Part shown: one piece after another, positions 31,010 through 61,572 of the stretch
How the letters are laid out: the number at the start of each line of letters is the position of its first letter
Position numbering within the stretch: position 1 is the stretch's first letter
Assembly (NCBI GenBank): GCA_028554795.2
Contig: CM068835.1
Coordinates: 34,256,901-34,320,900, forward strand
DNA: 64,000 bases
Origin: Sinohyriopsis cumingii
Taxonomy: Eukaryota > Mollusca > Bivalvia > Unionida > Unionidae
Direction: 5' to 3'
Made by a program: the position numbers and the translations under genes
The notes under the pieces: generated by a model
What the model was told of the DNA's origin: nothing
The model's database searches: none
Seen by the model: only the letters and a program-made list of their open reading frames with translations

Positions 31010-31385
31010 GGGACGATATAGCGCCAATGGGACTTTAATGTTAAAATAGTGACTTTGCCCTATTGCGACAAGGGGAATTGGAGAGGGGTGACGTCCCGGT
31101 ACTGGCTATTGGTGGAAGATTGGCAACAATGTTGCAAGCGGCTGACCTCAAACGGGCGGAACAGAATTGAAAGGGGCTGACCTGAATATGCGCTACTCTA
31201 AGGACAATTACAATGAAAACATAGATATATAGACATGGGTAGATATAAATACATAGACAAACATAGATTTATCGACATAAATCTATACAAAAAATATACA
31301 ACCGACATAATAAATTTAGGCAACAGATAATATGCATCTTTCGAAACAGTTGAGTGGCCCTTAAAAAGGTCGTTGAACTTTTTTG
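31010..31385 (+). repeat. Left terminal inverted repeat of Maverick relic A
   Basis: Reverse-complement match to 36,380-36,862. Shared blocks include ATATGGGGACGATATAGCG at the outer edge, GACAAGGGGAATTGGAGA, a TGACGTC box, and GGCTGACCTGAATA with CGCTACTCTA. The inner edge is the decayed histone-type stem-loop at 31,356. A partial extra copy of the outer edge lies just outside (about 30,865-30,925). Long TIRs are a family hallmark of Maverick/Polinton elements. Confidence 0.82.
31356..31371 (-). terminator. Decayed histone-type 3' stem-loop (relic A, left end)
   Basis: The minus strand reads GACCTTTTTAAGGGCC followed by ACTCAACTG. It is a mutated form of the GGCCCTTTTCAGGGCC hairpin at the other end of the same relic, with identical flanking sequence (CACTCAACTGTTTCGAAA). 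Confidence 0.7.
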
Positions 31386-31762
31386 TCTACTGTCTTCTCT
31401 TTTTATTTTCCACCAGTTCCTTATCTTATTAACTATATTTGTCGTCTTCTTCTCCTTCATTCCTTCTCCTCTTCCAACTTCTCCATCTCAATCTCTTTGT
31501 TCTATTTCATTCTCGGCCTCTTTCGTCATTATCTCATTGTATCTCCTCATCTGTTGTTTCTCCTCCCGATCATCCTGTCTTCTTTTTCCTATTTGATGAG
31601 TTCCTTTAGACTTTCTTTTGCTTTCCTCAAATCGTTGGTTTGCAAGACCTTGTGAGGGCTATAAGAGCCATAATTCAACCTTTCTTGCATTTCATGCACC
31701 ATCCCCAAATCATCCAGTACCCATTGCAACTTCTGTAACTTCTCTAATTTATTGCTCGCCAT
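31375..31762 (-). pseudogene. Decayed terminal coiled-coil protein gene (relic A)
   Basis: Starts MASNKLEKLQKLQWVLDDLG at 31,762 and keeps SPHK and LRKAK motifs, clearly the counterpart of the intact gene at 50,190-50,570 (MASNHLNKMEKLQNVMDNLG). A TAG at 31,589 ends the frame after 57 residues. The highly charged coiled-coil part and the C-terminal KIRNWWKIK can still be read beyond it in broken frames. A TATA box (GTATATAAAGT) and the conserved upstream box at 31,822-31,852 precede it. Confidence 0.85.
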
Positions 31763-31821: not shown

Positions 31822-31852
31822 AAATGGACGTGAAGGAAAACATCCCTTCACA
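31822..31852 (-). promoter_or_regulatory. Upstream box of the terminal coiled-coil genes (relic copy)
   Basis: The minus strand reads GGGATGTTTTCCTTCACGTC, the same box found 62-65 bp upstream of the three intact coiled-coil genes. It lies at the same distance from the ATG at 31,762. Confidence 0.75.
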
Positions 31853-33062: not shown

Positions 33063-33103
<41 letters not shown>

Positions 33104-36123: not shown

Positions 36124-36380
36124 ATGTGGACTAACGTTGAATCGTCTACCCTACTATCTTCGATGCTGTTCAACCCGGACTATCCCATGTATGTCAAATC
36201 ATCATGGGTTATCACGAAGATCACCGATACGGCCCTTTGGAAACAAAGAATCAATGTGGAGATGCAAGGTTGTCTGAAGTGAGTCTTAATCTATATTCCA
36301 GATGTCAGGCAAGGTTTAAGGAAGAGATGAAGACCCGTGCATTGCACTCCGTGTTAACTGAATGGTGTCAACAAAACTAA
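36124..36380 (+). pseudogene. Right-end gene of Maverick relic A, product unknown
   Basis: The ATG frame opens MWTNVESSTLLSSMLFNPDY and stops at 36,280. A second frame continues to a TAA at 36,378-36,380, nine bases before a perfect histone-type stem-loop. The region between them has splice-like ends (GTGAGT...TTCCAG) but only 23 bp, too short for an animal intron, so I read it as a frameshift from decay. I do not recognise the protein. It is not similar to the coiled-coil genes of the other end. The gene points outward to the right terminal repeat. Confidence 0.6.
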
Positions 36381-36862
36381 AAACTAAAGGCCCTTTTCAG
36401 GGCCACTCAACTGTTTCGAAAAGATGATTATTCTTTCTTGCATAACCATTATATTTGTTGGTTGTATAGTTGTTTGTTTGATAGAGTTATGTCAATAAAT
36501 ATATTTTGACTATGTCTATCTCTCTAACCATATGTATGTATATATGTCTCTCTTGTATTTGTCCCTAGAGTAGCGTGTATTCAGGTCAGCCCGTTTGCAA
36601 CACTGTTCCGACCGATTGTATTCAGCCCCATGCAACATTGTTACCATTGTTTCCCCAGACGACAGTACGGTGACGTCACCCATCTCCAATTCCCCTTGTC
36701 TCTAGACAGTCCCAATCCCTTATCGCTTTGTTTAATTTCCCTTGTAGCTACACAGTCCTACCCTTGTTGAAGTCACCTTGTCGCCATAGGGCTAACTCAC
36801 TATTTTAACATTCAAGTCCCATTGTCGCTATATCGTCCCCATATACTACTACTACTGAATGT
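36380..36862 (-). repeat. Right terminal inverted repeat of Maverick relic A
   Basis: Partner of 31,010-31,385. It is longer because it keeps more internal short repeats: on the minus strand GACAATGGGACTT, GACAAGGTGACTT, ACAAGGGAAATT and ACAAGGGGAATT follow one another. The outer edge is near CCCCATATACTACTACTAC. Its inner edge includes the perfect stem-loop at 36,389. Confidence 0.82.
36389..36404 (+). terminator. Histone-type mRNA 3' stem-loop (perfect)
   Basis: AAAGGCCCTTTTCAGGGCCA (36,386-36,405), continuing CTCAA. It has a 6-bp stem and a four-base TTTC loop, with the AAA upstream and ACYCA downstream flanks typical of replication-dependent histone genes. A purine-rich GAAAAGATGA starts about 14 bases downstream, where a U7-type histone downstream element is expected. 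Confidence 0.85.
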
Positions 36863-37045: not shown

Positions 37046-37150
<105 letters not shown>

Positions 37151-38589: not shown

Positions 38590-39015
38590 TTCCGCACCTT
38601 CTTCTCGTCTTTTTTCTTCTCTTTTTTCACGGGTAAGGGTTCTTTTCTTTTTTCGGATGGTACCTATTCCTCCTGTTCGAAAGTCCTCTCGTCCTACTCC
38701 TGTAGTTTCTAAAGTCGGTTCCCTTTTTTCTTAGGTCAGTATGAAGACCAATGTATGTTCTCTTGACAATGATAACAGGTATGCTGACTTTTTTCCCCTT
38801 TTAATGCCTGTCTTGCTTTGACATTGTGGACATTCTAAAGACCAATGTCCTTTCTTCTGATAGATATTGCATGTATCTTCACTTTTATCTCGAAAGGATA
38901 GTGAGTAGTTCGCCGGCTTCTCTAAAGAAAACCGTCGCATGACACAAAGCAAAGCTTTTTTCAGAAGTTCGATCATGGTTGGCTCTTCTATTTTTCTGAT
39001 AGAACTGTGATGCAA
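38590..39015 (-). pseudogene. Decayed CCHC zinc-knuckle protein gene (arm C)
   Basis: A 94-codon frame is open at 38,731-39,015, with CNIYQKKGHWSLECPQ, a CCHC knuckle in which the second Cys is Tyr. Further knuckle-like sequence follows in another frame, then a low-complexity Lys/Glu-coding tail. It is oriented away from the polymerase relic, as in arm A. Confidence 0.68.
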
Positions 39016-39039
39016 ATGATTACTTTTAGGGAAGACATT

Positions 39040-41235
39040 GACCCTATATGTAACATGTCTTAGAACTGTTGACTTTAGGCGAAGATTTCACAGACAGAAA
39101 ATACATTCACTTCTATCATCACGATGATCATTTCGATTCCATTACCAGTATCACCGGATTTCTGGGATACGGTTATTACTATGAGAAATGTGACTATGGT
39201 TATAACAATAAAGGGCAACACAAGCATTTTGGGTGGAAATGTGAGGAATGTTTGGCCTCTAAACCCTGTTAAGACAGGTGCATTACAAACCATGTCAGCG
39301 CACTTTTGTCTGCCCTACCTGTTACCAACTACGTCTGAAGAAGCAAAGTTCACAGCAGAAAAGTACTTGTCATCTCCTGGAATTGTGCCCTACTTGTGGA
39401 CAGTGCTTACGTACGAATAATACAAAGCTTCACTATGTTCAGGAAAGAAACGATGTCACACTTACCGCCAAATTGTGGGTTTGGAACACTAATGCTACAT
39501 TCAAAAATACCAACCTCAACAGGAAGAGAAAGACGATGACCAGACCGGCATTCAGGATCCAAATTTATGCGTGGCTCATCGAGGAGAGAGCAGAGCATGC
39601 ACAAACCGAACTTTTGTCATTGTCGCCACTGTAGCAAGATTCCTGGAGGACGTGAAGAAATCTTTCAAGCACCTAACACGCCGACCAATTTTAGCCAGTG
39701 GATCTTAGACCCTATTGACCAAACGTGGAGTCAAGAGGAAGGACATCAAACTTTCAGGAGATTGCCATCGCTATGCTACGGTGATAGCTCACAATTTCTC
39801 GGAATACAATGGACAATTTCCTATCAACTACTATACGGTACAAAGCACCGAACGTCCTAAAGGCACTTTTAACAGAACCAACCTCATATCCATCCATATG
39901 GGACAAGTGAAGTATAAATATTCCATCAGTTCCTTTGCCATTCTTTTGAATCGAATGCCTACAAGGGGTTTGGAGTGACAGAAATGACCAAAGGCTATTT
40001 TTCTGCACTTTTATAATACCGAAGCCGATCAACATGCTATCCTGCCACATGTGCCTGATGCTCGCTACTACGACTCTGACAACATGCCGTCCGAACAACG
40101 AGAAGCTTTCTCCGCTTGGTAAAGCACTCATGCCTCAGACCCCTTCGGCTTTCAGGAAGAAATGTTAAAGTATTGTTGATCTGACATTGACATTGTTGTG
40201 GAAAAGTTTGAAAATTATTCACGGAGCAGGGAGGGATCTATCCTTTATTAAAAACATTTTCAAGGCTTGTTCCTAATATACCGCACTGTTCTTCGTCATC
40301 AAATAACCCATTTTGTAAACGCCTTTATTCGGTAAAAGCTCTACACTGGACACCTTGTTTCTGCGACAAGAAAGACAAATAGATTCAACACGCCCGAAAC
40401 GAATGAACTGAAAAGACTATTAGAAAATATTCGGTGAATGGCTGAGACTTAGAAAACCCTAAGATCGTGTACGAATTTAACGGTTCCTTATTTCACGGTT
40501 GTTCAACCGGTTACCGTCAACGTGACACTAAAAATGAGCTTTTACAATGTACCATGGAAGACATGTACGAGGCCACTTTTCAACGTCGTTTGAAGTTAGA
40601 ACCGCAATGATACCAAGCGGTGGAAATGGGGAAACACGCTGACGACCAACGTTTCAAAACCGATCCCTAATTCATTCACATCGTGGAAAGATACAAGTTG
40701 GTGGACTCTCTGAACCAGAGGAACAGTTTATATGGAGGATCGACGAATGCCAAACGTTTGCTGTACCACGCCAACGAGGTGAAAGGAGAACAAATCAAGT
40801 ACCTGGACGTGTTTGCTGTATCTTTACGTATGAAAACATTGTCACTTCCCTGCAGACACCCAAAATTGCTTACGAAACACATTGACGTTGACAACATTAA
40901 ACAATACGAAGGATTGATTAAATTTAAAGTCTTGCCTCCCACGGACTTGTACCATCCCGTTTTACCTCACCATAGCCGTACTTGAACTGAAACGAGCGAC
41001 CAATACCAACTATGTTGACTGACCCTCAAAGAACAAACCTTGACAGAAACGTGGGTTAGCGTGAAATTATTTCAAGCTCTGGACCTGTGATACCAATTGT
41101 TAGAAGTATACGAAAGTTGCCACTTTCCCAAGACAGAACATTATCACAAGGGTGACGAGGCTCAGAAAGCCATTTTCGCAGACTACGTGGATGCACTAAA
41201 CGCTACTCAGTCAGGCATTCCAAATTCCCTGACGC
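39040..41235 (+). pseudogene. Decayed family-B DNA polymerase gene, 5' part (arm C)
   Basis: Plus-strand counterpart of PolB relic A. Readable pieces: KCDYGYNNKGQHKHFGWKCE, CHLLELCPTCGQCLRTN, RYATVIAHNFSEYNGQF and YKLVDSLNQRNSLYGGSTNA. The final part reads VKLFQAL to FADYVDALNA in broken frames. It ends in the same junction to core-protein sequence as arm A, so the internal deletion is older than the inverted duplication. Confidence 0.85.
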
Positions 41236-42030
41236 CACAGGAAGGACAAGGCAAAAAGAGACGACGATAGACACACCTCCGAAGGACTTCACACAGACAC
41301 ATTTATATAAAGACAAAGAAATGACTGACCGTCAGAGAATTGTACGTTTTTGATTATTAAACAAACAAATGATGCACCAGAGAATCTTGCAAGTGTTCCA
41401 AGTCAAAACTGGATCTGGTTGCCATAACACACACTGTGATGATGATGCAAGAATCCCAATGGAAAGTATTTCATCCCATCTCATCTTTGACGAACTCAAC
41501 CACCATCAAATCTGAAATCAAAGGACAGCAAGAGGATCACATCGATCTGAATAGCAGTTACTTGTACCTAAATGTCAAAGAGATAAAAACGAACGACATC
41601 GCTCGGTGAACCGATCCTAGAGTAGCTTTGGTCAACAATTTCATGCATTGCTTGTTCAGCGAAGTGGATTTGTACTTGAATACCAAACAAGCCAATAGCA
41701 GCACGGATACTTACTCTTACCGAGCGTACCTTGAAAATCTCTTGATGAAGGAAAAATATGCCAACAACACGCATCTGGATGCTTGCGTAGTATGGAAACG
41801 TGACACCGCAGACGAGGACAAGTTTAACGACACAGTCGTAACTGAAGCTGACTATCCTCACAATGTGCACTTTAACGACCGTCGAAATAAATCCTGCAAA
41901 GTCGTAGTTTAGATCAAATGGATCGTTTGCATTTGAACCTGTGGTTGCAAGGAAAGTATTTGCTGAACGAGGTAGATATATCCACCTGAGACTGAATCCC
42001 AGAAGTACCGTATTTTATTTGATGGCCCAT
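41236..42030 (+). pseudogene. Core-protein tail and 5' half of the major capsid gene (arm C, decayed)
   Basis: GGACAAGGCAAAAAGAGACG at about 41,245 matches the basic segment of the intact core protein. The capsid start ATGATGCACC lies at about 41,370. The capsid frame can be followed to about 42,030 with breaks: VNNFMHCLFSEVDLYLNTKQ and TYSYRAYLENLL both match the intact protein. It is cut there by a deletion that joins it to SINE head sequence. Confidence 0.88.
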
Positions 42031-42052
42031 GCCACCGAGTACGAGAGAGATG

Positions 42053-42118
42053 AGAGAGAGTTGAGATGGCAGTGATCCGTAACGGAGAGCGCTTTAGACC
42101 ACTCGGCAACTCGGGTCT
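42053..42118 (-). mobile_element. Head fragment of a family-2 SINE
   Basis: GATGGCAGTGATCCGTAACG to CGGCAACTCGGGTC matches the SINE head. It is the arm C partner of 30,563-30,630. Confidence 0.8.
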
Positions 42119-42317
42119 GTGATAAGTAACCTAGCTGAATCTCGGTAGTATTAATTTATGATTGATAGAACACAAAAACCTGCAAAAGTTACATTAGTAT
42201 TATAAAACCCTAATGCATCGACAACTGGAACTCCTCAGCTACGATCTACACCACTCAATGCAACAGAAATACTTCCCATGCCAACTTCTACAATTTTTAA
42301 GTAGTTCTATTCTATTT

Positions 42318-43512
42318 TGGTACTTTTTGTATCGCTACAATACCCTGTCTCTTTAAGTAAAGTATTATTAATTTTATCAATTTTCATTAGCCTAAACTTA
42401 ATTAATTACTACTTTTTATTCAGCGTCATTTAACTATTTTATCTTTTTGGCTCATGGTATACTTTGAGTAATCAGCTATTAGATCTTGAACAAGTGCAAG
42501 GAAATTGAAATCAGCACATCAGCATGTCTATAATACCCATCGTGGAACATATTTTAATATTAAAAATCATACTGTTCGCTAGCTGTCAAGTAATGAAATT
42601 GCTTCCTCAAATAACGCCATCTAAATCATGATTGTTTGGCCTTTAGAATCTCATATTATGGTTTTTCAAGTTGCTTTTGAAGTTGAACGTTTCATGACCT
42701 CTTATTTCGTTTGAAGTTACCTTACCATTGCGAAGGGAAAAAAACTTTTTTGCATTTGCTCTCAAACATTCGTCTAATTTGTAAGCAAACTACAGTTTTC
42801 CTATACTTTTATGATTAGTTGTGAATTCACAGTCATACTCGTTGCTGGCAAAGTGTATCCCAGTTATTTCCCTGTCATTTTGTCTTCATATATGGTACAG
42901 GCAGATCAAACGGTATCTTCTATAGATTCAAAACAAAGTTAATTCTTTTTCAAGCTGACTTCGATCCATTTAAACAGGGTAAATTGGTTAACAGTGTATG
43001 GAATTAATTGGTTAAAGAACATCGACTTTAACCATGTCCAATCCCTACTCCTCGTCCTTCACCGTCCGTTAGAAATTCTAAGCCTCGTTAATCAACAGAT
43101 CAACAAAGTTTTCTTTATCTATCGAAAGACTAGATCATACTCATACATAATTAAAAGTTAAATAAAGATGAGTGATGTTAAAATAATTTTAAAATTTTAC
43201 ACATTGCATTGCGAAGAAATAAACAAACATAAGTTTTTATTTTCTAACATTGCTAACTCAAGATAGTTTTTCATTCAACAGTATAGTTATTAAACCAGGT
43301 GGAAAAAGGTTTCTACGGGATATAGGTTAGGAAAGAACAGAAAAAATATTAAATAGCCCATATATCATTAAAATAGAACTAGCCATACCTAATTGTAAAT
43401 ACATTTATTTTAATTGTTCACTGATATGGAAGAAATGCATGAGAATTTACAAAATGGAAATACTGATTGTAGGAATAAAATTCATGACTTAAACAGACTA
43501 AGATATATGGAT

Positions 43513-43591
<79 letters not shown>

Positions 43592-45115
43592 TCAAACAGA
43601 AGGAAAAAACATTAAGAGTATATTTGACTGCTGTTGACAACTGACCTTGACTAGGTTGTTAATTGACCTCTTATCTGGAATTGTTCTTAAAGATTTATAT
43701 GTAGTAGCAAAATGAATTAGCGATTAGGTAATGTATTGACTACCTAATTAATGACTGAATTCGGAAAGCAAAGCCAATACACATTTTTATTTGTTGTATA
43801 ATTTATACTTCTAGGTGACCTTCGTCTTCGGTTTCTGAATCTTGATTCCCTGATTGATTTGTATGCTATTATAATTCATATGCATTTAATAAAACCGATC
43901 TGCTCTGACATTTTATCCTCTATTTTGTGGTATGTGGAGTCACAATGTGGGTTGGTGCTACTGTTATCAAACAATTTGTCCGACCCTTGTATCAGATTTC
44001 CATTAAATATTCTGAGTACCGGGTTCTCAGAATTTTCCAATAAGATTTTGAAGGTAGGCGTCTCAGGATTTCTCATACATTTTGAAGGCAGAGATTGTAT
44101 GTATCCTAGGTTTTATTGCTATAACTGCTTTGCCCAGTGGCCCAGGATTCGTGAAATTGTGAAGACCAATGGCATACTTGCATTAGCAGCTATGTTAAGG
44201 CCAAAAGTCTATGATTTGTTTCATTAATATTTCCAGACCAGTGACTTAGGTACAAAGTCAAAGGTTAGGGGTAACGACCAAATGGCATGTGGCCCAGAGC
44301 ATTAATATTCTAGAAAGGTGACCGATGGCTTTCAAAAAATAACAAATTGGGGATGGTTGAATGCTAGCTGAAAATTTTCTTAAAGTGAATGCAAACTGTT
44401 TAACCGGTATAATCTGACTAAAAACGGATTTTGAAAACCCAGAATCGATCGAAGCTATATAGCTACCCGTACAGATGTGACATTATGTGACCTATGAGAT
44501 CATTACTGGGCATATGTAGCTTTAATAGAGACATATTAATCTTCCATCGCTTAAAAATGTTCAAATCCGTGCAGAAAGAATATTGATTTTAACCCTTCAG
44601 TAAGATGTCATAGTTAAGATTATGTTAATCCAAAAGAAAATACTGGGGCACAATTTGTTGAGCTGGCTCAGAGAAATTGTTGGCTCAGTGTGTGGCTTTG
44701 TTTATAAAAATATTCGTAGGAAGATTACCTTTACGTCTATGGACAACACGGTCAATTTTCTTACATAATATGATTTTAGCATCCGTTTGCATGTTTCAAG
44801 TGGGGTTTCTTATTATATCTCTTGAAGAAGTACCGCAGACAATCGATGAGCTTACGGACAAAAATTAGTGGGCTTGATATGGATTGGTTACAAGTTACAG
44901 GTCATCAGTGCCTGAAATATAACGAGCAATTTTGTTGTTGATATGTATCTATAATGCTATCAAATTCGCACAACCACCTTACATATATTACGTACAGCGC
45001 TCATTCAGTGCATAACTTTACATACGAAAAACACAGGTTCATTCAACACGCATTGTTTTGACAGCCCTCATGAACTAAATTCAAAATTATTTTTTTCGAA
45101 CAGCAGTTACTGGTT
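42318..45115. other. About 2.8 kb present in arm C but absent from arm A
   Basis: The two arms align up to AGTAGTTCTATTCTATTTTG and resume at TAGAATACATAATAGGTGCA. The stretch between has no counterpart in arm A. It could be an insertion in C or a deletion in A. It holds an AT run (43,517-43,588) and a few frames of 60-120 codons (for example 43,859-44,227 +) that I do not recognise. I saw no terminal repeats or target duplication. Confidence 0.6.
43517..43588. repeat. (AT)n microsatellite
   Basis: About 72 bp of AT dinucleotide. Confidence 0.97.
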
Positions 45116-45541
45116 TAGAATACATAATAGGTGCATTTCAGTGTGGTTGGTATTACAAACTGGAGCATTTTAGCTCATTTTTAATTCACAACAAAAAAAC
45201 TTGACATCATTGAGGCCCGTGTCGTCTCCTCCACGTTGAGGCCCCTCTATACGGATCTGTATGCCACAAATGGCAGGGTTTATGGGACAACTCTCACTCA
45301 TCCCCATAAGAGCCCCAATTTCCTTGGCCAGAAGGGTGGACCAGCTCGTATTGGTGTCTATCTGACGTAAGATCACGACACATGAACGTTACGTAGTTAG
45401 CTGCCATATCGTCACAGTGAGTTCCCTAAACCAAAATGAAATAAACAAAAACAAAACAAAATTTAAAAAAAATTAATTCAATAAATAAAGAAAATATTTA
45501 ATAATAAACAAATAGTATCGACGTTATTAAAACAAACAGTT

Positions 45542-45702
<161 letters not shown>

Positions 45703-49040: not shown

Positions 49041-49838
49041 AATGAGGATAGCATAATTACATAGCAAAGGATATGTGATAGCAAACTGGGAGAAATAGAA
49101 TGTCTATTTTAATAGCTGGAGCATGAAGAAAATAGTGTTTCCTTAAAGTAGGTACTATTTTATATATGGTTGTAAATACTATGGTTCTTATATGTGAAAT
49201 ATAATTGCAGTGGAAGTCATTACCTGGAATTTTAGTTATCAATTTAAGTATATTGATCAAAAGAAATATAGTAAACCAACCTTCACATGATGTACACATT
49301 GAACAAATATAATTAAATTTGAATAGTTTATAACTGAGGAAAATCAACGGATGCAACCAAACAACAATTACCTGTTAATGTGACAAAGCTACAAAGGATG
49401 TTTTATATTCTCTCTCGATAATGTCGTAATTTAAAATCCATAGAAAAGACTAAAAACATTCCAAAAAATTAGAGAGAAAGAAATATTACTACGTAACTGA
49501 TACAAAATATCCTTGATACAACAATACCAAAATATCAAACATAGAAATTACGGTCTTCCCTAATTTCTATTAGAAATAGAAGAGAACTTAATAGAACAGC
49601 ATTGAAACTAAAATGAATTGTTGCAAGAAAACTACAAGACCAGTTTAAAAGAATACAAATTAAATGAATACATATTTGAAGCTGGAATTAAAACTAACAA
49701 ACAGTTTTCTTTATCAAAAGAAAATGGACCCTTCTTATATAAGGTGGAATAATTTGCAATTTACGATTACTAAAAGTCCAGTTCGATTTGTCAATTTAAC
49801 GAACCAGGGAAACATGATAATCAGCATTATGAGTAGTG
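49041..49838. other. Host flank of the intact Maverick, no gene recognised
   Basis: AT-rich. A 68-codon frame (49,664-49,870 +) runs into the terminal repeats and has no family that I recognise. Confidence 0.45.
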
Positions 49839-49840
49839 AA

Positions 49841-50055
49841 GGGGGACACTTTACGTACAATGGGAATTAGCATTAAAAACACCCTTGGGACACTTTACGT
49901 ACAATGGAAATTTAACATGGAGAAAAATCGTGGGACACTTTACGTACAAGGGGAATTAACATGGGAATAAATCGTGGGACACTTTACGTACAAGGGAATT
50001 TAACATGGGAATAAATTGTGGGATACTATACGTACAAGGGGAATTTAACATGGGA
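49841..50055 (-). repeat. Terminal tandem repeats of the intact Maverick (element end)
   Basis: Five units of about 45 bp, each starting GGGACACTTTACGTACAA and followed by GGGGAATTTAACATGGG with small changes. The ACAAKGGGAATT core is also the short repeat inside the terminal repeats of relic A. That, and the distance of about 320 bp to the first stem-loop (about 345 bp in relic A), place the element's end here. The other end is beyond the window. Confidence 0.75.
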
Positions 50056-50116
50056 TTTTTTTTTTTAAAAAAGTTTTTTTTAAAATTTAAATTTTAAATT
50101 TAAATTTAAAAAAGGG
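50050..50116. repeat. A/T-only palindromic tract
   Basis: T12, A6, T8 and then nested AAATTTAAATTT words, about 60 bp with no G or C apart from one G. It could fold back on itself. An assembly artefact in a hard homopolymer region is also possible. Confidence 0.7.
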
Positions 50117-50157
50117 GTAGGCAATTCAAAGACTATCTCTTTTCGAGAAATATGGCT

Positions 50158-50173
50158 GGCCCTGAAAAGGGCC
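50158..50173 (-). terminator. Histone-type mRNA 3' stem-loop, gene 1
   Basis: The minus strand reads AAAGGCCCTTTTCAGGGCCA (stem GGCCCT/AGGGCC, loop TTTC), 17-32 bases after the stop at 50,190. A purine-rich CGAAAAGAGATAG follows about 12-25 bases downstream. An AATAAA (50,181-50,186) sits between stop and hairpin, so polyadenylation cannot be excluded for this gene. Confidence 0.88.
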
Positions 50174-50189
50174 TTTGGGTTTTATTCTT

Positions 50190-50570
50190 CTAATTTCTTC
50201 TTTTCCTCCACCAAGTTCTTATTTTATCTCCTACACTCTTCTTCTCTTTCTTTTTTTTCTTCTCCTCTTCTTTCTTCTCTTCCTCCTCTTCTTTCTTCCT
50301 CTTTTCATTTTCTTCTTCTTTTTCAATTTTTTCATTCCATTCTCTCATCCTTATCCTTTCCTCTTCATCCTCCTTTTCCTCCTTTATTTCTTTCAACAGA
50401 TCACTAATGATTACCTTCATTTTTCGTAAATTGTTTATCTCCATCTTCACTCTATGGGGACTATATGAGTAGTGATCCTCGTTTAGGTTAACCAACATTT
50501 GCTCAAACATTCCTAAATTGTCCATGACGTTTTGCAATTTTTCCATTTTGTTAAGGTGGTTTGACGCCAT
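50190..50570 (-). CDS. Terminal coiled-coil protein 1 (charged, WW-Arg tail)
   Basis: 126 residues. The N-terminal 60 residues (MASNHLNKMEKLQNVMDNLG, then SYSPHRVKMEINNLRKMK) form a short helical domain shared with the decayed gene at 31.4-31.8 kb. Residues of about 60-112 are almost entirely Glu, Lys and Arg, a long charged helix or coiled coil. The C-terminus IRTWWRKRRN is conserved in the relic (KIRNWWKIK). It is the outermost gene of the element. Function unknown. The position, the charged helix and the histone-type 3' end are the only clues. The ATG at 50,570 lies 62 bases from the conserved upstream box, as in its paralogues. Confidence 0.85.
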   Translation of the reverse strand: MASNHLNKMEKLQNVMDNLGMFEQMLVNLNEDHYSYSPHRVKMEINNLRKMKVIISDLLKEIKEEKEDEEERIRMREWNEKIEKEEENEKRKKEEEEEKKEEEKKKKKEKKSVGDKIRTWWRKRRN

Positions 50571-50620
50571 CTTCTTTGTATTCTTTGCAGAATGGTTTGA
50601 ACAACTAATACTGTGGGTTC

Positions 50621-50729
50621 TTATACGAAAAGCGCGAACGTGAAGGAAAACATCCCCCTAAAACATAAAATGGATCTTACCTAGATGATGACCCAACATC
50701 GCGCGTACGTGAAGGAAAACATCCCCCTA
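50621..50729 (-). promoter_or_regulatory. Promoter of coiled-coil gene 1: TATA-like box and two copies of the upstream box
   Basis: The minus strand reads GTATAAG (50,621-50,627). Upstream is the box TGTTTTCCTTCACGTTCGCG (50,632-50,660, led by GGGGGA), and a second copy lies at 50,699-50,729. The same box stands before genes 2 and 3 and before the relic gene. Confidence 0.75.
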
Positions 50730-50938
50730 CTTTCTCATTTCATATAATATAACCCTAACTATACTCTTCACATACGCTAAGAAACCCATAATTTACTATT
50801 CACACCAACATACCTGAGCTCTTACAAACACACAAACACACACTTCCACTATTAATAAAGAGTTAGTGTTTATATTCACACTACTCTACCTACACACATT
50901 GGCAAATTAATAGTTATTTCTTTTCTAGAGTATTGGGT

Positions 50939-50954
50939 AGCCCTGAAAAGGGCT
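50939..50954 (-). terminator. Histone-type mRNA 3' stem-loop, gene 2
   Basis: The minus strand reads AGCCCTTTTCAGGGCT and then ACCCA, the canonical histone downstream flank, 30-45 bases after the stop at 50,984. A purine-rich AGAAAAGAAATAA follows at about 50,912-50,925, as expected for a U7-binding element. No AATAAA lies between stop and hairpin. Confidence 0.9.
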
Positions 50955-50983
50955 GTTTTGTTTGGAACTTCATGGGCACCTGG

Positions 50984-51322
50984 TTAATGGTGGCACCTTC
51001 CAGGCCTGGCGCCACATACACATCTTATCCCCCAGTTACTTTTTACCTTTTGGGGGGAGAGAGCAGAGGCAGGATATGTTGCTTCAGAATCCCAATTTTC
51101 ACTCTCTGGGATTTTGAAATTTCTTCTCTCCTTTTCCTCCTCCTCTTCTTTGCTTCTTCTTTCCTCTTTATATCTTCTTTCTTCTTCTTCTTTGTTTCTT
51201 CTTTCCTCCTCTCTTATCCTTCCCTCCTCGACAATGGCTTCCGCGGCCAGTTCATTTAATATGCGCCTGGCATATTCCAGATGCACATGAAGTTCCAACA
51301 GTTTCTCCAGTCTCGTGTTCAT
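50984..51322 (-). CDS. Terminal coiled-coil protein 2
   Basis: 112 residues, starting MNTRLEKLLELHVHLEYARR. A highly charged Glu/Arg/Lys helix covers about residues 35-68, followed by a C-terminal segment unlike that of protein 1, ending with three cysteines' worth of CVCGARPGRC. It is a tandem paralogue of genes 1 and 3: same promoter box, same ATG spacing (64 bases), same 3' structure, same N-terminal pattern (M-x-S/T-x-L-x-K-L). The charged middle is typical of drift in low-complexity regions, so homology rests mainly on the flanks. Function unknown. Confidence 0.8.
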   Translation of the reverse strand: MNTRLEKLLELHVHLEYARRILNELAAEAIVEEGRIREEERRNKEEEERRYKEERRSKEEEEEKERRNFKIPESENWDSEATYPASALSPQKVKSNWGIRCVCGARPGRCHH

Positions 51323-51371
51323 TTTTGGTGTTGATCAATCAACAAGGGTAGCTGGACTGCCGAACGAGTTT

Positions 51372-51415
51372 CAATTTATAGTGAAAGCGCGGACGTGATG
51401 GAAAACATCCCCCCT
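51372..51415 (-). promoter_or_regulatory. Promoter of coiled-coil gene 2
   Basis: The minus strand has a TATA box CACTATAAATTG (51,372-51,383) directly preceded by the conserved box GATGTTTTCCATCACGTCCG (within 51,386-51,415, G-run at its 5' side). A weaker second box, TTTAGGTCCGCGCG, lies near 51,465-51,480. Confidence 0.8.
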
Positions 51416-51765
51416 AATATAAAATTGATCTTACCTAGATCATGACCAAAAAAACAACAACAACGCGCGGACCTAAAAGAAACACTCGCTCACTTTTTTA
51501 TGCTACCCATCACTATTGTAAAATTTTTTATAAATCACTTTAATAGACTATCCACATAAGCAATCCAATCTAACCCCAAATATACACCTCAAACACCAAA
51601 AAGACTTAATTTTAATCTACTATCCTCACCAACTTACGTTAGCTCTTACAAACACACAAACACATGCCCTCACATTTTTTAAGAAAGAGTAAGTGTTTAT
51701 ATTCACACTACTCTACCTACACACATTGGCAAATGGATGGTTATTTCTTTTCTAGAGTATTGGGT

Positions 51766-51781
51766 AGCCCTGAAAAGGGCT
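51766..51781 (-). terminator. Histone-type mRNA 3' stem-loop, gene 3
   Basis: The minus strand reads AGCCCTTTTCAGGGCT and then ACCCA, 28-43 bases after the stop at 51,809, with AGAAAAGAAATAA downstream (about 51,739-51,752). The 70 bases beyond are nearly identical to those downstream of gene 2, showing recent tandem duplication or conversion of the whole 3' region. Confidence 0.9.
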
Positions 51782-51808: not shown

Positions 51809-52174
51809 TTAGTTTCTAAGAATGCGATGTCCTCTGAGGATAGACTTTCTGGCAATAGGTCTGCTTCTTCGGAAAGAGAAGAAGAATTCTTTGGTGTCGA
51901 TACGACAATCGACAAAGCCTCTGTCAGCTTCAGGTTGCTGCTGTTGCTGCTGTTGCTGTTGTTGCTGCTGTTGCTGCTGTCTCTGAAGTCTGTACTTCTC
52001 TGTCCATTCTTCTTTCTCCCTGTTCATTTCTTCTCTGAAGAGCTCTTCTATCAGGTCTTCAGTGATTTTTAACATTCTCACATTCTCTATTTCTTCTGGT
52101 TTCGGTATCAGACTGTGTCTGACCCTATGCAGATTCACGTAGGCTTCGTTGAGCTTAGCTAGTTTGGAGCACAT
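51809..52174 (-). CDS. Terminal coiled-coil protein 3, with a polyglutamine run
   Basis: The start is the ATG at 52,174 (MCSKLAKLNEAYVNLHRVRH), 65 bases from the promoter box. The upstream in-frame TTG at 52,198 is not a plausible start. The protein has 121 residues with helical N-terminal half, then about 17 consecutive Gln encoded by mixed CAG/CAA codons (about residues 64-80), then a basic C-terminus with RRSRPIARKSILRG. Paralogue of genes 1 and 2. Function unknown. Confidence 0.8.
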   Translation of the reverse strand: MCSKLAKLNEAYVNLHRVRHSLIPKPEEIENVRMLKITEDLIEELFREEMNREKEEWTEKYRLQRQQQQQQQQQQQQQQQPEADRGFVDCRIDTKEFFFSFRRSRPIARKSILRGHRILRN

Positions 52175-52226: not shown

Positions 52227-52268
52227 TCTTAAAGTGAAAGCGCGGACGTGAAGGAAAACATCCCCCCC
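52227..52268 (-). promoter_or_regulatory. Promoter of coiled-coil gene 3
   Basis: The minus strand has the box TGTTTTCCTTCACGTCCGCG (with G-run and GA before it, 52,239-52,268), followed by CACTTTAAGAA, a degenerate TATA, at 52,227-52,237. Confidence 0.75.
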
Positions 52269-52492: not shown

Positions 52493-53053
52493 CTACTTTG
52501 AACAGGGCTGACAACGTTGTGAATGAAATTGTGATTTCCACTGTTGGAAATCATTAGGCCATTGATGGACACTACGTTTCCTAGCTTGAGACAAAAGATA
52601 AGCATAATGGTCACAAAACCATCGATCTACTTTCACATCGTTTCTAGCAGAAGACCGAGGATCGAAATGAGTCACTAAATGTTCTAAGGAAAAGCCCAGG
52701 CTGCGATGATGCAGAAAATACACACAGTACTGTCCACACACCAAGGAATCTGTGCCTTGTAATTTCACGTTATTGAATCGGGTGGTTTGAGCATTTCTTC
52801 TCATAAAGTCGATGATATCGTCTTCCAAGGGGGGCAATCCATACGAATCGAAATATTCCACACATCCTTCTTGAGGAAAGTAGACGGCTACCCAGTGGGT
52901 TCCTGGGAGATGACTATCGTCCGTGTTGATCACGTAAGCTTGATGGTCTTTAGGTTTGCGATGAGGGAGTTCATCTTTAGCACAGACGACGGGATTCCAA
53001 GAAGACGTATACGAACTGTGGTTCAAAAGGTAATAAAGTTCCCAGGTATCCAT
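52493..53053 (-). CDS. PRO: Adenain-like cysteine protease (virion maturation)
   Basis: 186 residues, close to the roughly 200 of adenovirus protease. The catalytic set is visible: His53 in GTHWVAVYF, Asp69 in EYFDSYG, Gln99 in LQGTDS, and Cys106 in LVCGQYC, matching the adenain order His, Asp/Glu, Gln, Cys. In adenoviruses and Mavericks this enzyme cleaves core and capsid precursors after DNA packaging. Candidate target sites are present in two neighbouring proteins here. It is the last gene of the capsid block, 22 bp after the Cys/His gene, with a poly(A) signal beyond. All catalytic positions are intact. Confidence 0.95.
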   Translation of the reverse strand: MDTWELYYLLNHSSYTSSWNPVVCAKDELPHRKPKDHQAYVINTDDSHLPGTHWVAVYFPQEGCVEYFDSYGLPPLEDDIIDFMRRNAQTTRFNNVKLQGTDSLVCGQYCVYFLHHRSLGFSLEHLVTHFDPRSSARNDVKVDRWFCDHYAYLLSQARKRSVHQWPNDFQQWKSQFHSQRCQPCSK

Positions 53054-53588: not shown

Positions 53589-54896
53589 CTAATAATCTAG
53601 AATGACTTCTCTCAAACTGTTGATTTCTATGGTATTATCGAATTCTGCATACAGGATGACGTTCACTGTCACTGGTAGTTTATCTGCAAACTGAAGTTCC
53701 ACACGAATCTGGCCAGATTTTATAGGGTGGAAATGTCCCTCGTCGCTGCCTTGGTCTGGAGTGAAATCGAAAGCCCACAAAGCATAGCCTCCTGCATAAT
53801 CGTCATACTCAATGCCGTGACTGGTGTTGGTTCCTAACTGACCGGTGGCTTCGTACAGGGACAAGTACGATCTCAAGTAATTCATCTTCTTGTCACTAAA
53901 GTCAGGTTCGAAAGGTCGGGTACACAAGGTCTTGCCATCACGACTGACTTCGACTTTCTTCACGTTGAAGTGTTGAAAGTTGAAAGGATTTTCTTTGAAG
54001 GCTCCGTTGAAGGCTGAATTCGAGACCATACCAAGGATTAAACGCTTGGGTAACTGTCCTTGGAACAGATGATCTTCGGCTATGGATTGAAGGTTAGCGG
54101 GAATGGTGAACGTTTTCACTTCCACACGTCGTATGGGATACTTGGCGGTTGTTCTGCTCAACGTTTGACTGATGTCGTTACCTACTTTGGGTAACACTTC
54201 CACGCGTCGTACGTAGAGTTTGGCCTCCTGGATTATGCTTTTAGGAGCCTTAGCAGGATCAGCAGCTATCAAATGGAAAGCGGCACTGCTGCGATTCAGT
54301 CTCAAGCGGACATTCACCCCGTTCAGCAAATATTTCTCTTGCAACCACATGTCCAAATGCAAACGATCCATCAGTTCTAAACTCTTCTTCTCTAAGATTT
54401 TGCTTTCTCTTGCCTCAAAGCCGGAATTGCTTCCATCTGTTTTTTCGAACTTGCCCGCTTCGTCAGCTACCCACAGCACGCAGGCATTGAGATGACTATC
54501 CTTGGCATCTATTCCGTACGTCAAGAGATTTTCCAAGTAGGCACGGTAAGGGTATGTATCCATGCTGCTGCTGACTAGTTTGTTATTCAAGTACAAATCC
54601 ACTGAGCTGAACAAGGAATGCATGAAATTGTTGACGGGAGCTATTTCGTCAGCGTCATCTACTCCACTATCATCTTTTTCTAGAACTTGGACTTTCAAGT
54701 ACAAGTAACTGCTATTCAGATCGATGTAATCTTCGGGCTGCCCCTTGATTTCAAATTCGATGGGAGCGGAATCGGTCAGTGAGGAGATGGGGTGAAATTC
54801 CACCCACTGGGATTCTTGCATGGTCATCATGGTGGGGGGCATGGCAAACAGATCCAGTTCCGTCTTGGAACAGGCGCAAGACTCTCGGTGCATCAT
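53589..54896 (-). CDS. MCP: Maverick major capsid protein (double jelly roll, hexon-like)
   Basis: 435 residues, within the usual range for the short Maverick capsid family annotated in animals as F54H12.2-like. Landmarks: FHPISSL, EFEIKGQPEDYIDLNSSYLY (about residues 46-66), VNNFMHSLFSSVDLYLNNK, TYPYRAYLENLLTYG, and a C-terminal VNVILYAEFDNTIEIN. The family forms the trimeric hexon-like capsomer. The start is MMHRESC at 54,896, since the relic copies keep the same initiator. The frame is fully open, whereas two decayed copies lie at 31.9-33.0 and 41.4-42.0 kb. It lies between the core protein (19 bp upstream) and the Cys/His gene (6 bp downstream). Confidence 0.95.
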   Translation of the reverse strand: MMHRESCACSKTELDLFAMPPTMMTMQESQWVEFHPISSLTDSAPIEFEIKGQPEDYIDLNSSYLYLKVQVLEKDDSGVDDADEIAPVNNFMHSLFSSVDLYLNNKLVSSSMDTYPYRAYLENLLTYGIDAKDSHLNACVLWVADEAGKFEKTDGSNSGFEARESKILEKKSLELMDRLHLDMWLQEKYLLNGVNVRLRLNRSSAAFHLIAADPAKAPKSIIQEAKLYVRRVEVLPKVGNDISQTLSRTTAKYPIRRVEVKTFTIPANLQSIAEDHLFQGQLPKRLILGMVSNSAFNGAFKENPFNFQHFNVKKVEVSRDGKTLCTRPFEPDFSDKKMNYLRSYLSLYEATGQLGTNTSHGIEYDDYAGGYALWAFDFTPDQGSDEGHFHPIKSGQIRVELQFADKLPVTVNVILYAEFDNTIEINSLREVILDY

Positions 54897-56696: not shown

Positions 56697-57809
56697 TCAC
56701 TTCTTCTTTTTATAGTCGATGACTTGCGAAGCGTCGATCCAAGAATCGAAACTGGGTGGATATCCTTTCCAACGTACTTTGACTTCTTTGACACGTCGTT
56801 TGCCCACTTTACGGGTTCTGCGTTCGAGAATGCTTTCGATGTCGTACACGTCGTCTTCTTTTTTGGTGACACGTTGTAACTCGGGCAAATAAAACGTTCC
56901 TTTGAGTACTTCTCCGTTCATGTCTTCCAATTTATAGACGGCAGGATGACGGCCATGTACTCGTCCAGTGACGCGAAACAGTTCGGTCGTCCAGTTAGGT
57001 AAGTAACCTTTGTCGAAAGTGCGTTTGGTTTTGCCAATGCGCACCCAATCTCCTACGGTCAACTCTCCACTTTTCTTGGGGACAGCCCTCGTCGGGGACG
57101 TACCGAACAGGCGCTCGAACACCAGCACTTCGTTGTCGGGAGTCACGTCTTGCGGGGCACGTCCGATGCTTCGATGGTAAGATTGGTTGTACGCTTGCAC
57201 CAGGTGCGGTAAGATGTCGATGTACTTCAGAGTGTGGTGATGCGTAAAATATTTCCACATGCGTTCTTTCAAAGTGCGTTGAAAACGTTCCACGATGCTG
57301 GCTTTGGTTTCGGGATTCTCGGTGGTAAAAAAATGAATGTCACGTTTCTTTAATTCTTTTTGGAAAGCTTGATTCAGAAATTCGGTGCCTTTGTCCGTTT
57401 GCCATCGAAGAGGGCGACGACCGCTTTGTTTCAACACCCGTTGCAGGGCTCGCACTAACTCGCTGCTGGATTTGGAAGTCAAGGGTACGACCCAGGCAAA
57501 TTTGGAAAAGACGTCGATGACACAAAACAAATATTTGTAACCACGATTGTAGCTGGCCAAATGAGAGACATCGGCTAAATCGGCTTGCCATTGATGATCG
57601 ATACCTTCCACTCGGGTGCGACTTCTGGCAAACTTGCGTCGAATGGGTTTGTGTAAAGTGTAGGTAGCTTGTTCTTGTAACCATCGTTGCACTTGAGGTA
57701 AACGGAGACTTTTCAGTCGCGTTTTGGCAGCACGATACAATTTTTGAACTCCTGCGTAACCTGCAGGATGCGAGGGATCGTAGTAAATGCTAGCTAAGAC
57801 TTTTTCCAT
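56697..57809 (-). CDS. INT: Retroviral-type DDE integrase with C-terminal chromodomain
   Basis: The start is the ATG at 57,809 (MEKVLASIYYDPSHPAGYAG). The GTG 36 bp upstream is disregarded. 370 residues. The rve core has Asp77 (WQADLAD), Asp139 (QTDKGTEF) and Glu174 (ASIVERF), with 34 residues between the last two, as in active integrases. Then come YLPNWTTELFRV, and a chromodomain at about residues 318-365 (YDIESILERR to VRWKGYPPSFDSWI). Integrases of this type insert Mavericks and adintoviruses, and the chromodomain may steer insertion to marked chromatin. The frame and catalytic set are intact. Confidence 0.95.
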   Translation of the reverse strand: MEKVLASIYYDPSHPAGYAGVQKLYRAAKTRLKSLRLPQVQRWLQEQATYTLHKPIRRKFARSRTRVEGIDHQWQADLADVSHLASYNRGYKYLFCVIDVFSKFAWVVPLTSKSSSELVRALQRVLKQSGRRPLRWQTDKGTEFLNQAFQKELKKRDIHFFTTENPETKASIVERFQRTLKERMWKYFTHHHTLKYIDILPHLVQAYNQSYHRSIGRAPQDVTPDNEVLVFERLFGTSPTRAVPKKSGELTVGDWVRIGKTKRTFDKGYLPNWTTELFRVTGRVHGRHPAVYKLEDMNGEVLKGTFYLPELQRVTKKEDDVYDIESILERRTRKVGKRRVKEVKVRWKGYPPSFDSWIDASQVIDYKKKK

Positions 57810-59975: not shown

Positions 59976-60719
59976 TCATGGGGAGTGAAATGAAGTCGAG
60001 GACGGAGACGTGTACAGGACAGGCCCTCCGTCTTGGCACCAGTGGTGAAACAAGTGGGTACGAAATCGCAAATCCTCGGGGGTCGTAGGTTTCAAATCGA
60101 CGAGCAAATAGGCGTGTGGCGTTTGAGTGGCATCGTCGTACGCCTGAGTCAGCCAAGGCGTTCCTAACTGTTTGGCTAAGACTTGCACTTGCGATTTATC
60201 TCGAGGGCTTTTAAACAAGACCACGTAATGCGCATTGAGACTGATGGTGCGATGGGCTTTACTTTGTTGAAACAAATTTTGGGTGATGTAAATGACACTG
60301 GCATTACGGTGATGCCCTTTGCGCGTGAACCACAATTTAATTTCTTCTTCGTCTTCTCCTAACATGTCGTCGAAAATGACCAAATGGGTTAGACGGGAGT
60401 CAGAGACGATGCCGTCGTCTTCTTTAGGAATGCCTTCCACAAACACGATGGAATCGCCTTGACTTTCTCGCAAGAGGCTGTACGCCGATTGCCACTCTTT
60501 GTAACACCACACGATCCGTTGAGGGGGCCGATCGATCAAATGATGTTTATGTTCGATCAAACGTTTGACGAATTCGGTTTTGCCCGAACCGCCAGGTCCA
60601 GCAATGAGCATGTTAAAGGGATGGCGAAGATACAAAGCCTCCCAACTGGCACGATCTAAGTGTTCGTCGATGACTTTGACAGTAGAGGAAGAGGGAGCAG
60701 AGACAGCAGAGGTAGCCAT
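59976..60719 (-). CDS. ATP: Genome-packaging ATPase (FtsK/HerA, A32-like)
   Basis: The start is the ATG at 60,719 (MATSAVSAPSS). The frame extends to a TTG at 60,764, but no earlier ATG exists and the TATA box lies at 60,768. 247 residues. Walker A GPGGSGKT (41-48) follows HPFNMLIA. Walker B is HLVIFDDML (112-120). Then come YITQNLF (a sensor-like Gln) and the SPRDKSQVQVLAKQLG block typical of Maverick packaging ATPases. The enzyme pumps DNA into capsids. The frame and ATP-binding motifs are intact. Confidence 0.94.
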   Translation of the reverse strand: MATSAVSAPSSSTVKVIDEHLDRASWEALYLRHPFNMLIAGPGGSGKTEFVKRLIEHKHHLIDRPPQRIVWCYKEWQSAYSLLRESQGDSIVFVEGIPKEDDGIVSDSRLTHLVIFDDMLGEDEEEIKLWFTRKGHHRNASVIYITQNLFQQSKAHRTISLNAHYVVLFKSPRDKSQVQVLAKQLGTPWLTQAYDDATQTPHAYLLVDLKPTTPEDLRFRTHLFHHWCQDGGPVLYTSPSSTSFHSP

Positions 60720-61357: not shown

Positions 61358-61572
61358 GGAGGTGGTAAGTACTGATCGTAAAGAGTCCACAAAGAATCGG
61401 CTGGTAAACGAAATCCCAGAAAACAAGTCACTAAGACACACACCACTTGTCGTCCAAAATTGAATGGATACAGTTCTTGTAATAATTGATGGTAATGATC
61501 CACGGTTTGAATATGGTCATTGAGTTCCTTCCACGGAATCTGTTGGATGACATGTGACATAAACCGTGGCAT
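61348..61572 (-). CDS. Small ORF with hydrophobic segment, unknown function
   Basis: 74 residues from the ATG at 61,572 (MPRFMSHVIQQIPW), or 70 from 61,560. It includes a hydrophobic stretch VVCVLVTCFLGF. A TATA box (61,582-61,589) is so close that only the second ATG or a later one would lie in its transcript, so this promoter may in fact serve the 61,357 and 61,137 frames. It overlaps the end of the F-box-like gene. Confidence 0.42.
   Translation of the reverse strand: MPRFMSHVIQQIPWKELNDHIQTVDHYHQLLQELYPFNFGRQVVCVLVTCFLGFRLPADSLWTLYDQYLPPPWP

What the first reader, a model, noticed from the sequence alone, without database searches (positions are those of the whole stretch)
50158..51781. 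Maverick terminal genes end in histone-mRNA-type stem-loops
Three consecutive element genes each finish 17-45 bases after the stop with GGCCCTTTTCAGGGCC or AGCCCTTTTCAGGGCT, the exact shape of the replication-dependent histone 3' hairpin (6-bp stem, TTTC loop, CA-rich downstream flank). Each is followed 12-30 bases later by a purine tract (GAAAAGAGATAG, AGAAAAGAAATAA) where the U7 snRNA target sits in histone genes. Genes 2 and 3 have no AATAAA between stop and hairpin; gene 1 does. None encodes a histone. In animals this hairpin binds SLBP and makes mRNAs that are unpolyadenylated and stable only in S phase. A selfish element or virus using it would tie expression to host DNA replication. I know of no description of this in Mavericks.
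Basis: partly seen in the sequence, partly recalled or inferred. Interest (0 to 1): 0.93.

Follow-up and report, generated by a model that had tools for sequence, protein, structure and literature searches.

The report
Mavericks disguised as histone genes
A virus-like jumping gene, present in very many copies in a large (probably mollusc) genome, ends its small accessory genes with the same RNA hairpin and processing signal that its host uses for histone genes, and starts several of them with a histone-gene promoter motif, as if to be switched on when the cell copies its DNA.

Summary
The window holds most of a 19.8-kb Maverick (348/349-identical TIRs, ATTATG target duplication). Its three leftmost genes, and two at its right end just outside the window, each end 16-29 nt after the stop in RGCCCTTTTCAGGGCY, then 13 nt, then GAAAAG. 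The host's H3, H4, H2B, H2A and H1 genes end in the same kind of signal (13-14 nt). None of 16 other ORFs of the element in the window does. The exact hairpin occurs 53,873 times in the genome (reversed control 0); 97 of the first 100 fit arrays of this element. In an older lineage sampled by protein, 13 of 20 copies keep it within 2 mismatches (0 of 1000 shuffles). Unexpectedly, g1-g3 also carry a promoter motif of host histone genes: g2 shares an exact 24-mer with H2B and a 21-mer with H4. Best reading: five accessory genes built as histone-gene mimics, processed by host SLBP/U7 and so tied to S phase. RNA evidence is missing; U7 and SLBP were not identified here. Ten paper searches found no description.

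The parts
49826..49831 (.). target-site duplication ATTATG, left copy (right copy follows the right TIR in L080)
49832..50180 (.). left TIR of element B, 349 bp, 348/349 identical to the right TIR (L080:5302-5650)
50158..50173 (-). histone-type hairpin GGCCCTTTTCAGGGCC ending gene g1 (inner edge of TIR)
50139..50144 (-). GAAAAG tract (putative U7 target), 13 nt after the hairpin of g1
50190..50570 (-). g1, 126-aa acidic ORF with basic C-terminus
50632..50653 (-). histone-type promoter motif, proximal, of g1
50701..50722 (-). histone-type promoter motif, distal, of g1
50939..50954 (-). histone-type hairpin AGCCCTTTTCAGGGCT ending gene g2
50920..50925 (-). GAAAAG tract, 13 nt after the hairpin of g2
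50984..51322 (-). g2, 112-aa ORF
51387..51408 (-). promoter motif of g2; lies in an exact 24-mer shared with the host H2B promoter
51465..51486 (-). distal motif of g2; overlaps an exact 21-mer shared with the host H4 promoter
51766..51781 (-). histone-type hairpin AGCCCTTTTCAGGGCT ending gene g3
51747..51752 (-). GAAAAG tract, 13 nt after the hairpin of g3
51809..52174 (-). g3, 121-aa ORF with poly-Q and basic C-terminus; at least 150 copies of 100% identical protein in the genome (listing limit)
52240..52261 (-). promoter motif of g3
52493..53053 (-). protease-like ORF (Peptidase_C5 E=0.0086, below cut-off); AATAAA 103 nt after stop, no hairpin
53589..54896 (-). major-capsid-like ORF (name recalled); no hairpin
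56697..57809 (-). integrase (rve + chromodomain); no hairpin
59976..60719 (-). packaging-ATPase-like ORF (Pox_A32); no hairpin
31398..31762 (-). decayed g1 homologue in the older element A (51% identity over 68 aa, 37% over a further 63)
31356..31371 (-). decayed hairpin GACCTTTTTAAGGGCC of element A (19.9 bits, below cut-off; placed by homology of the flank)
31822..31843 (-). promoter motif (4 mismatches) of the element A g1 homologue
36124..36279 (+). MWT-family ORF fragment of element A, 52 aa to a stop (28/52 identical to the element B copy)
36389..36404 (+). intact histone-type hairpin of element A
36418..36423 (+). GAAAAG tract, 13 nt after that hairpin
31067..31386 (.). left TIR region of element A (aligned part, 79% identical to the right)
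36376..36700 (.). right TIR region of element A (aligned part)

Best explanation
The window carries most of a Maverick/Polinton whose five end-proximal accessory genes are built as mimics of the host's replication-dependent histone genes: single-exon ORFs, a 3' end made of the SLBP-type hairpin plus a U7-type GAAAAG tract at the host spacing and, for g1-g3, the host's histone promoter motif. Inferred working: RNA polymerase II transcribes these genes in S phase; host SLBP binds the hairpin and U7 snRNP binds the GAAAAG tract; the pre-mRNA is cut a few nt after the hairpin; the unpolyadenylated mRNA is exported, translated and degraded like histone mRNA. The element would thus make its small (probably early or regulatory) proteins when the host replicates DNA, while the other 16 ORFs tested (capsid-like, integrase, ATPase and so on) lack the signal; AATAAA sites lie behind two of them. 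Shown: anatomy, conservation, identity with host histone signals. Inferred: SLBP/U7 use, lack of poly(A), S-phase timing, role of the five proteins.
For: (1) Host standard: H3, H4, H2B, H2A and H1 of one ~8.3-kb tandem repeat unit end in RF00032 hairpins (35.0-39.4 bits), then 13-14 nt, then GAAAAG; the five element B genes have the hairpin, 13 nt, GAAAAG. (2) Specificity: 5 of 5 accessory genes of element B have it in sense orientation 16-29 nt after the stop; 0 of 16 other ORFs tested in the window do (best 5 mismatches of 16). (3) Genome: 53,873 exact hairpins, reversed control 0; 97 of the first 100 fit arrays ordered like the element, 9 of them complete five-hairpin arrays (no null was run for the ordering). 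(4) The 63 hairpins in 30 fetched loci and the window all lie behind six element gene families; GAAAAG at 13 nt is exact in 51 of 63 and one letter off in 10. (5) Genes whose hairpin had not fetched the locus: 30 of 33 have one (<=3 mismatches, >=5 pairs) within 230 nt; in the 3 misses the protein match ends early. (6) Among copies that have it, the hairpin (mismatch 0.062 in g2, 0.047 in MTE) and GAAAAG (0.028, 0.000) vary less than the spacer between them (0.160, 0.157). (7) Older lineage sampled by protein: 12 of 20 within 1 mismatch, 13 within 2; no shuffle of 1000 had fewer than 3. (8) Promoter: g2 shares a 24-mer with H2B and a 21-mer with H4 (shuffle maximum 15); host H2B and H1 match the motif at 1 and 2 mismatches, 20 shuffles of the repeat 6 at best; 11 of 11 testable g1/g2 copies have it upstream. 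(9) dN/dS 0.13 (MWT), 0.43 (MTE), 0.19 (g2).
Against: No transcript, 3'-end or protein-RNA data. Host U7 not identified (best 29.3 bits, below cut-off 34; of two pattern hits the one examined lacks a clear 3' hairpin and neither is an RF00066 match). The SLBP domain search found nothing (its controls rang nowhere, so uninformative). g1 and MWT hairpins lie in the TIR. g2 and g3 hairpins in the window score under the Rfam cut-off. Covariation is thin: two pairs with double changes, one of them only in host H1. MTE and MWT lack the promoter motif (no match at <=5 mismatches in L080), and the host H3 promoter shares at most 9 nt with the element promoters. In the older lineage the hairpin varies about as much as the coding part (0.201 against 0.185), 7 of 20 copies have 3 or more mismatches (a level that 1000 of 1000 shuffles also have, 124 with 5 or fewer), and GAAAAG is exact at 13 nt in only 9 of 20: these copies are decaying. 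The rates leave out copies without a hairpin. No RF00032 match at E<=1 in 5 of 5 fetched Maverick loci from MAGs of other hosts, several of them partial or decayed.
Confidence: 0.82

Rival explanations
1. The hairpin works in the mRNA (SLBP binding, stability or export), but the transcripts are mainly polyadenylated further downstream, so the genes are not strictly coupled to S phase.
For: AATAAA lies 3 nt after the g1 stop in the window copy and upstream of the hairpin in one g1 variant (L019). That some animals and tissues polyadenylate histone mRNAs is recalled; one search lists papers on C. elegans histone 3' ends and maternal histone mRNA, seen as listings only.
Against: No AATAAA/ATTAAA within 250 nt of the g2 stop and only one ATTAAA at 192 nt for g3; the GAAAAG tract at host spacing is needless for a mere SLBP-binding role.
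Confidence: 0.09
2. The hairpin is a DNA-level element of the TIR (replication origin, packaging or integrase signal) that merely looks like a histone hairpin.
For: g1 and MWT hairpins lie at the inner edge of the TIR in element B and in element A.
Against: g2, g3 and MTE hairpins are internal with different downstream sequence; the five of element B are in sense orientation after a stop codon; the same hairpin-spacer-GAAAAG unit ends host histone genes; g1-g3 also share the histone promoter motif.
Confidence: 0.03
3. Relic: an ancestor picked up a histone gene end and the modules were copied along without function.
For: Exact 24-mer and 21-mer shared with host H2B and H4 promoters suggest capture; g2/g3 units are duplicates; in the older lineage hairpins decay like the coding part.
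Against: Hairpin and GAAAAG vary less than the spacer between them in two gene families; same module in two lineages whose MWT proteins are 28/52 identical; an outer G-C pair is replaced by A-U in the g2/g3 family.
Confidence: 0.05
4. Only the host transcription factor motif is shared, and the hairpins arose by chance or assembly error.
For: None found.
Against: 53,873 exact genome copies against 0 for the reversed pattern and Rfam scores up to 45.6 bits.
Confidence: 0.01

Closest known systems
Replication-dependent histone genes of the same genome (RF00032 hairpin plus GAAAAG tract)
   Same: 6-bp hairpin with 4-nt loop, A-rich 5' flank, 13-14 nt, GAAAAG; promoter motif shared with H2B, H1, H2A (reverse, 4 mismatches) and, for g2's distal motif, H4; single-exon ORF
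   Different: the proteins are not histones; element B loop TTTC against host TTTT, TTTC and TTTA; g2/g3 have the outer pair A-U; the genes sit in a mobile element
Maverick/Polinton elements (vertebrate set of PMC8097293; four passages seen by term search)
   Same: TIRs, 6-bp target duplication, intronless ORFs (passages); integrase, capsid-like and ATPase genes (recalled for the family)
   Different: histone-type 3' ends and promoters; the terms histone, stem-loop, polyadenyl and hairpin occur 0 times in that paper
Bracovirus histone H4 (one passage of PMC12819152 seen; primary paper not read)
   Same: a virus interfering with the host histone programme
   Different: that virus encodes a histone H4 variant that suppresses host H4 mRNA; here no histone is encoded, only the gene signals are imitated

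Membership tests
Maverick/Polinton | terminal inverted repeats | tested here: met
   349 bp, 348/349 identical
Maverick/Polinton | 6-bp target-site duplication | tested here: met
   ATTATG on both sides
Maverick/Polinton | retroviral-type integrase | tested here: met
   rve E 2.4e-14 with Chromo
Maverick/Polinton | packaging ATPase | tested here: met
   Pox_A32, 29.5 bits over cut-off 22.8
Maverick/Polinton | capsid proteins and adenovirus-type protease | tested here: inconclusive
   capsid-like ORF: no Pfam match, 1534 homologues of which 120 were listed, named ones uncharacterised, one with PF21738; its capsid name is recalled; protease E 0.0086, below cut-off
Maverick/Polinton | protein-primed DNA polymerase B | tested here: inconclusive
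   only a 218-aa piece in the window, no Pfam match; label rests on a recalled motif
Histone-type mRNA 3' end | RF00032 stem-loop behind the stop codon | tested here: met
   over cut-off for g1, MTE and MWT of element B and MWT of element A; g2/g3 in the window 31.0 bits, below 34
Histone-type mRNA 3' end | downstream element at host spacing | tested here: met
   13 nt then GAAAAG in element B, host genes 13-14 nt; exact in 51 of 63 hairpins of the fetched loci and window
Histone-type mRNA 3' end | complementarity to host U7 snRNA | tested here: inconclusive
   U7 not identified
Histone-type mRNA 3' end | SLBP binding and unpolyadenylated transcript | not testable with these tools
   needs RNA; SLBP gene search gave nothing and its controls rang nowhere
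Replication-dependent histone gene | encodes a histone | tested here: not met
   no histone family in g1, g3, g2, MTE or MWT
Replication-dependent histone gene | host histone promoter motif | tested here: met
   g1-g3 yes; MTE/MWT no

The most novel reading that the evidence does not exclude
A virus-like mobile element has turned a set of its genes into histone-gene mimics at both ends (promoter and 3' processing signal), making non-histone, unpolyadenylated, S-phase-restricted mRNAs. This would break the rule that histone mRNAs are the only unpolyadenylated protein-coding mRNAs of animals, and with about 10^4 copies (inferred) the element would own the great majority of exact hairpins of this form in the genome and could compete with histone genes for SLBP and U7.
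Probability: 0.7. Interest if true: 0.95.

Novelty: new variant of a known kind. Interest (0 to 1): 0.92.

Why it matters
[quoted passage not shown] A selfish element that copies both the promoter motif and the 3' signal would be a natural exception, would explain how a nuclear element times its genes to host replication (dividing germ line, early embryo), and gives a natural panel of 5 genes and thousands of copies for asking what the hairpin, U7 site and promoter each contribute. It also suggests a cheap marker (RF00032 behind non-histone ORFs) for finding S-phase-coupled genes in other viruses and elements.

Tried and rejected
Relatives in viral contigs: capsid-like protein, its alignment, integrase and g3 alignment found none; hairpin scans gave 0 and 10 hits, and the 10 loci have no RF00032 match at the gathering cut-off. 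Contaminant Mavericks in bacterial MAGs (L001-L005) show no RF00032 match at E<=1 and no promoter motif at <=5 mismatches; L001 has an AATAAA about 300 nt behind its protease-like ORF (read by eye). U7: Rfam and a pattern built on a recalled Sm site gave no credible gene (of the two pattern hits L081 was not found again by the script, being on the other strand, and was not folded). SLBP domain: nothing, uninformative. Structure prediction of g3 was switched off. Covariation is too thin to lean on. TIR-signal and chance readings rejected as given under rivals. The upstream mismatch rates were not used because copies differ there by indels; one search used 12 g2 and 13 MTE copies that have a hairpin, leaving out 2 MTE without one. 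In one search, 1 of 20 loci (L101, best 8 mismatches) was dropped from the mismatch rates but counted as a miss; its shuffles were of single letters. In one search, 3 of 33 were misses. Only 30 of the 75 RF00032 matches were read, and that search scored 75 of 589,472 candidates. The grouping accepts partial arrays of two. The copy number of about 10^4 is inferred from the counts.
Full report
WHAT IS THERE. The window is C12:34256901-34320900 of a 2.90-Gb genome. The right part of the window is a Maverick, here element B: left TIR 49832-50180, right TIR in the next 10 kb (L080:5302-5650), 348 of 349 positions identical, ATTATG on both sides, about 19.8 kb in all. It carries an integrase with chromodomain, an A32-type ATPase, a weak adenovirus-type protease match and an IAP/BIR gene, a capsid-like ORF and part of a polymerase-like ORF without a Pfam match.

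THE HAIRPINS. The three hairpins are exact. Two more end the genes at the right end: MTE (L080 4269-4835 minus, hairpin at 4241, 27 nt after the stop, 41.2 bits) and MWT (L080 from 5055 plus, hairpin at 5309, 23 nt after the stop, 35.6 bits). So the element has five hairpin genes: g3, g2, g1 pointing to the left end, MTE pointing inward and MWT pointing to the right end. None of the 16 other ORFs tested in the window has the hairpin within 200 nt of the stop: the best has 5 mismatches of 16. AATAAA occurs within 250 nt after the stop of the protease-like ORF and of u128b, and 3 nt after that of g1.

THE HOST STANDARD. Histone genes of this genome lie in ~8.3-kb tandem repeats. One unit (L076) has H4, H2B, H2A and H1 and the end of H3, and all five end in RF00032 hairpins of 35.0-39.4 bits. 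After the hairpin come 13 nt (H3, H4, H2B) or 14 nt (H2A, H1) and GAAAAG; the five genes of element B and the MWT gene of element A have 13 nt and GAAAAG. The host loops are TTTT, TTTC and TTTA; element B's is TTTC.

HOW COMMON. The exact hairpin with its following A occurs 53,873 times in the genome, the reversed pattern 0 times. Of the first 100 places, 97 fall into groups ordered as in the element: 9 complete (16.5-20.9 kb), 7 with four, 4 with three, 6 with two; 3 are single (lenient for pairs, no null run). g3 has at least 150 copies with 100% identical protein (listing limit). In a search of the genome with RF00032, 75 matches were scored of 589,472 candidates; 30 were cut out, and the hairpins that brought them in all lie at element genes, none at a histone gene. 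About 10^4 elements is my inference.

CONSERVATION. In the 30 loci plus window, 63 hairpins lie behind six gene families: g2 12, g1 10, g1 variants 5, MWT 20, MTE 15, g3 1. GAAAAG at 13 nt is exact in 51 of these 63, one letter off in 10, worse in 2. Counting only genes whose hairpin had not fetched the locus, 30 of 33 have one; in the 3 misses the protein match ends early. Among copies with a hairpin, the hairpin (0.062 in g2, 0.047 in MTE) and GAAAAG (0.028, 0.000) vary less than the 13-nt spacer between them (0.160, 0.157). In the older lineage A, sampled by protein and not by hairpin, 12 of 20 copies are within 1 mismatch and 13 within 2, at the same place behind the gene; no shuffle of 1000 had fewer than 3. 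Six more have 3-5 mismatches, which 124 of 1000 shuffles also reach, and one has 8; GAAAAG is exact at 13 nt in 9 of 20 and at 12 nt in 1. There the hairpin varies as much as the coding part (0.201 against 0.185) but less than the spacer (0.355): these copies are decaying. The genes are under purifying selection (dN/dS MWT 0.13 from 11 copies, MTE 0.43 from 9, g2 0.19 from 6). Covariation is modest: outer G-C to A-U in the g2/g3 family and C-G to U-A in host H1.

THE PROMOTERS. Unasked for, a motif upstream of g1 (twice), g2 and g3 turned up in the host histone repeat: 1 mismatch of 22 upstream of H2B, 2 upstream of H1, 4 in reverse upstream of H2A, while 20 shuffles of the repeat reach 6 at best. 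g2 shares an exact 24-mer with H2B, and its second, distal motif shares an exact 21-mer with H4; 200 shuffles of the H2B stretch reached 15 at most. 11 of 11 testable g1/g2 copies have the motif within 250 nt upstream. The exact 23-mer GATGTTTTCCWTCACGTCCGCGC occurs 30,227 times, reversed 0. It is absent from the MTE/MWT end, and the H3 promoter shares at most 9 nt. The MTE/MWT end has TATAAATA and GTGACGTCAC (by eye). What binds the motif is unknown to me.

MECHANISM. The combination says that these five genes are meant to be read and processed like histone genes. The steps SLBP binding, U7 pairing, cleavage, lack of poly(A) and S-phase timing follow from what is established for histone genes, not from tests here. 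U7 and SLBP were not identified in the genome by these tools. The role of the proteins is unknown: small, with basic C-termini (by eye), no Pfam family over its cut-off. I think regulatory or early proteins most likely.

KNOWN OR NEW. Ten paper searches (titles and abstract starts seen) listed nothing on histone-type ends in Mavericks or viruses; no paper holds both 'histone mRNA' and 'polinton'. The library holds open-licence papers only. Term searches inside two papers: the viral-histone review PMC9145170 has 0 hits for stem-loop, polyadenyl or SLBP; the vertebrate Maverick paper PMC8097293 has 0 for histone, stem-loop, polyadenyl. PMC12819152 (passages) states that S-phase histone mRNAs are the only unpolyadenylated protein-coding transcripts in animals. 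No RF00032 match was found in 5 of 5 Maverick loci from MAGs of other hosts, several of them partial or decayed, so the trait may be confined to this lineage. Relatives of g3 (9 proteins) and MTE (20 proteins) exist in other collections, but their DNA could not be read here.

CHECK.

Noticed in passing
window 30000-45500: Element A sequences lie in a large inverted arrangement (arms about 30005-35689 and 38585-45557) around an AT microsatellite at about 37044-37150.
   Followed up: partly
window 62532-63275: The element carries an inhibitor-of-apoptosis (BIR) gene (PF00653, E 1.3e-23).
   Followed up: no
window 61517-62035 and 62048-62503: Tandem pair of related ORFs (88% identical DNA over 204 bp); no Pfam match for the first.
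   Followed up: no
window 27758-29180: Tandem array of about 1.4 kb with period near 98 or 49 bp (by eye).
   Followed up: no
L001-L005: Bacterial MAG records (symbionts of Escarpia and Bathymodiolus and others) contain contigs coding for Maverick capsid-like proteins, probably host contamination.
   Followed up: partly
L080:4269-4835 (MTE): N-terminus of MTE is rich in acidic and bulky residues (NPDLLSEEVNWDFVDFL), reminiscent of a transcription activation domain (recalled resemblance, not tested).
   Followed up: no
protein P0122: An extended g3 homologue reads, before its Met, GVFSIASALVPYKAG, which would fit translation of the promoter motif and a TATA box; suggests the motif is kept in a relative (by eye, DNA not seen).
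   Followed up: no
L076: The histone promoter motif is shared by H2B, H1 and H2A (reverse), with a variant at H4, but not obviously H3: a candidate histone-specific regulatory element of its own interest.
   Followed up: partly
L002:11734-11798: Weak type-P1 twister ribozyme-like match (28.9 bits, cut-off 67.2, E 0.037) behind a decayed Maverick capsid-like gene.
   Followed up: no
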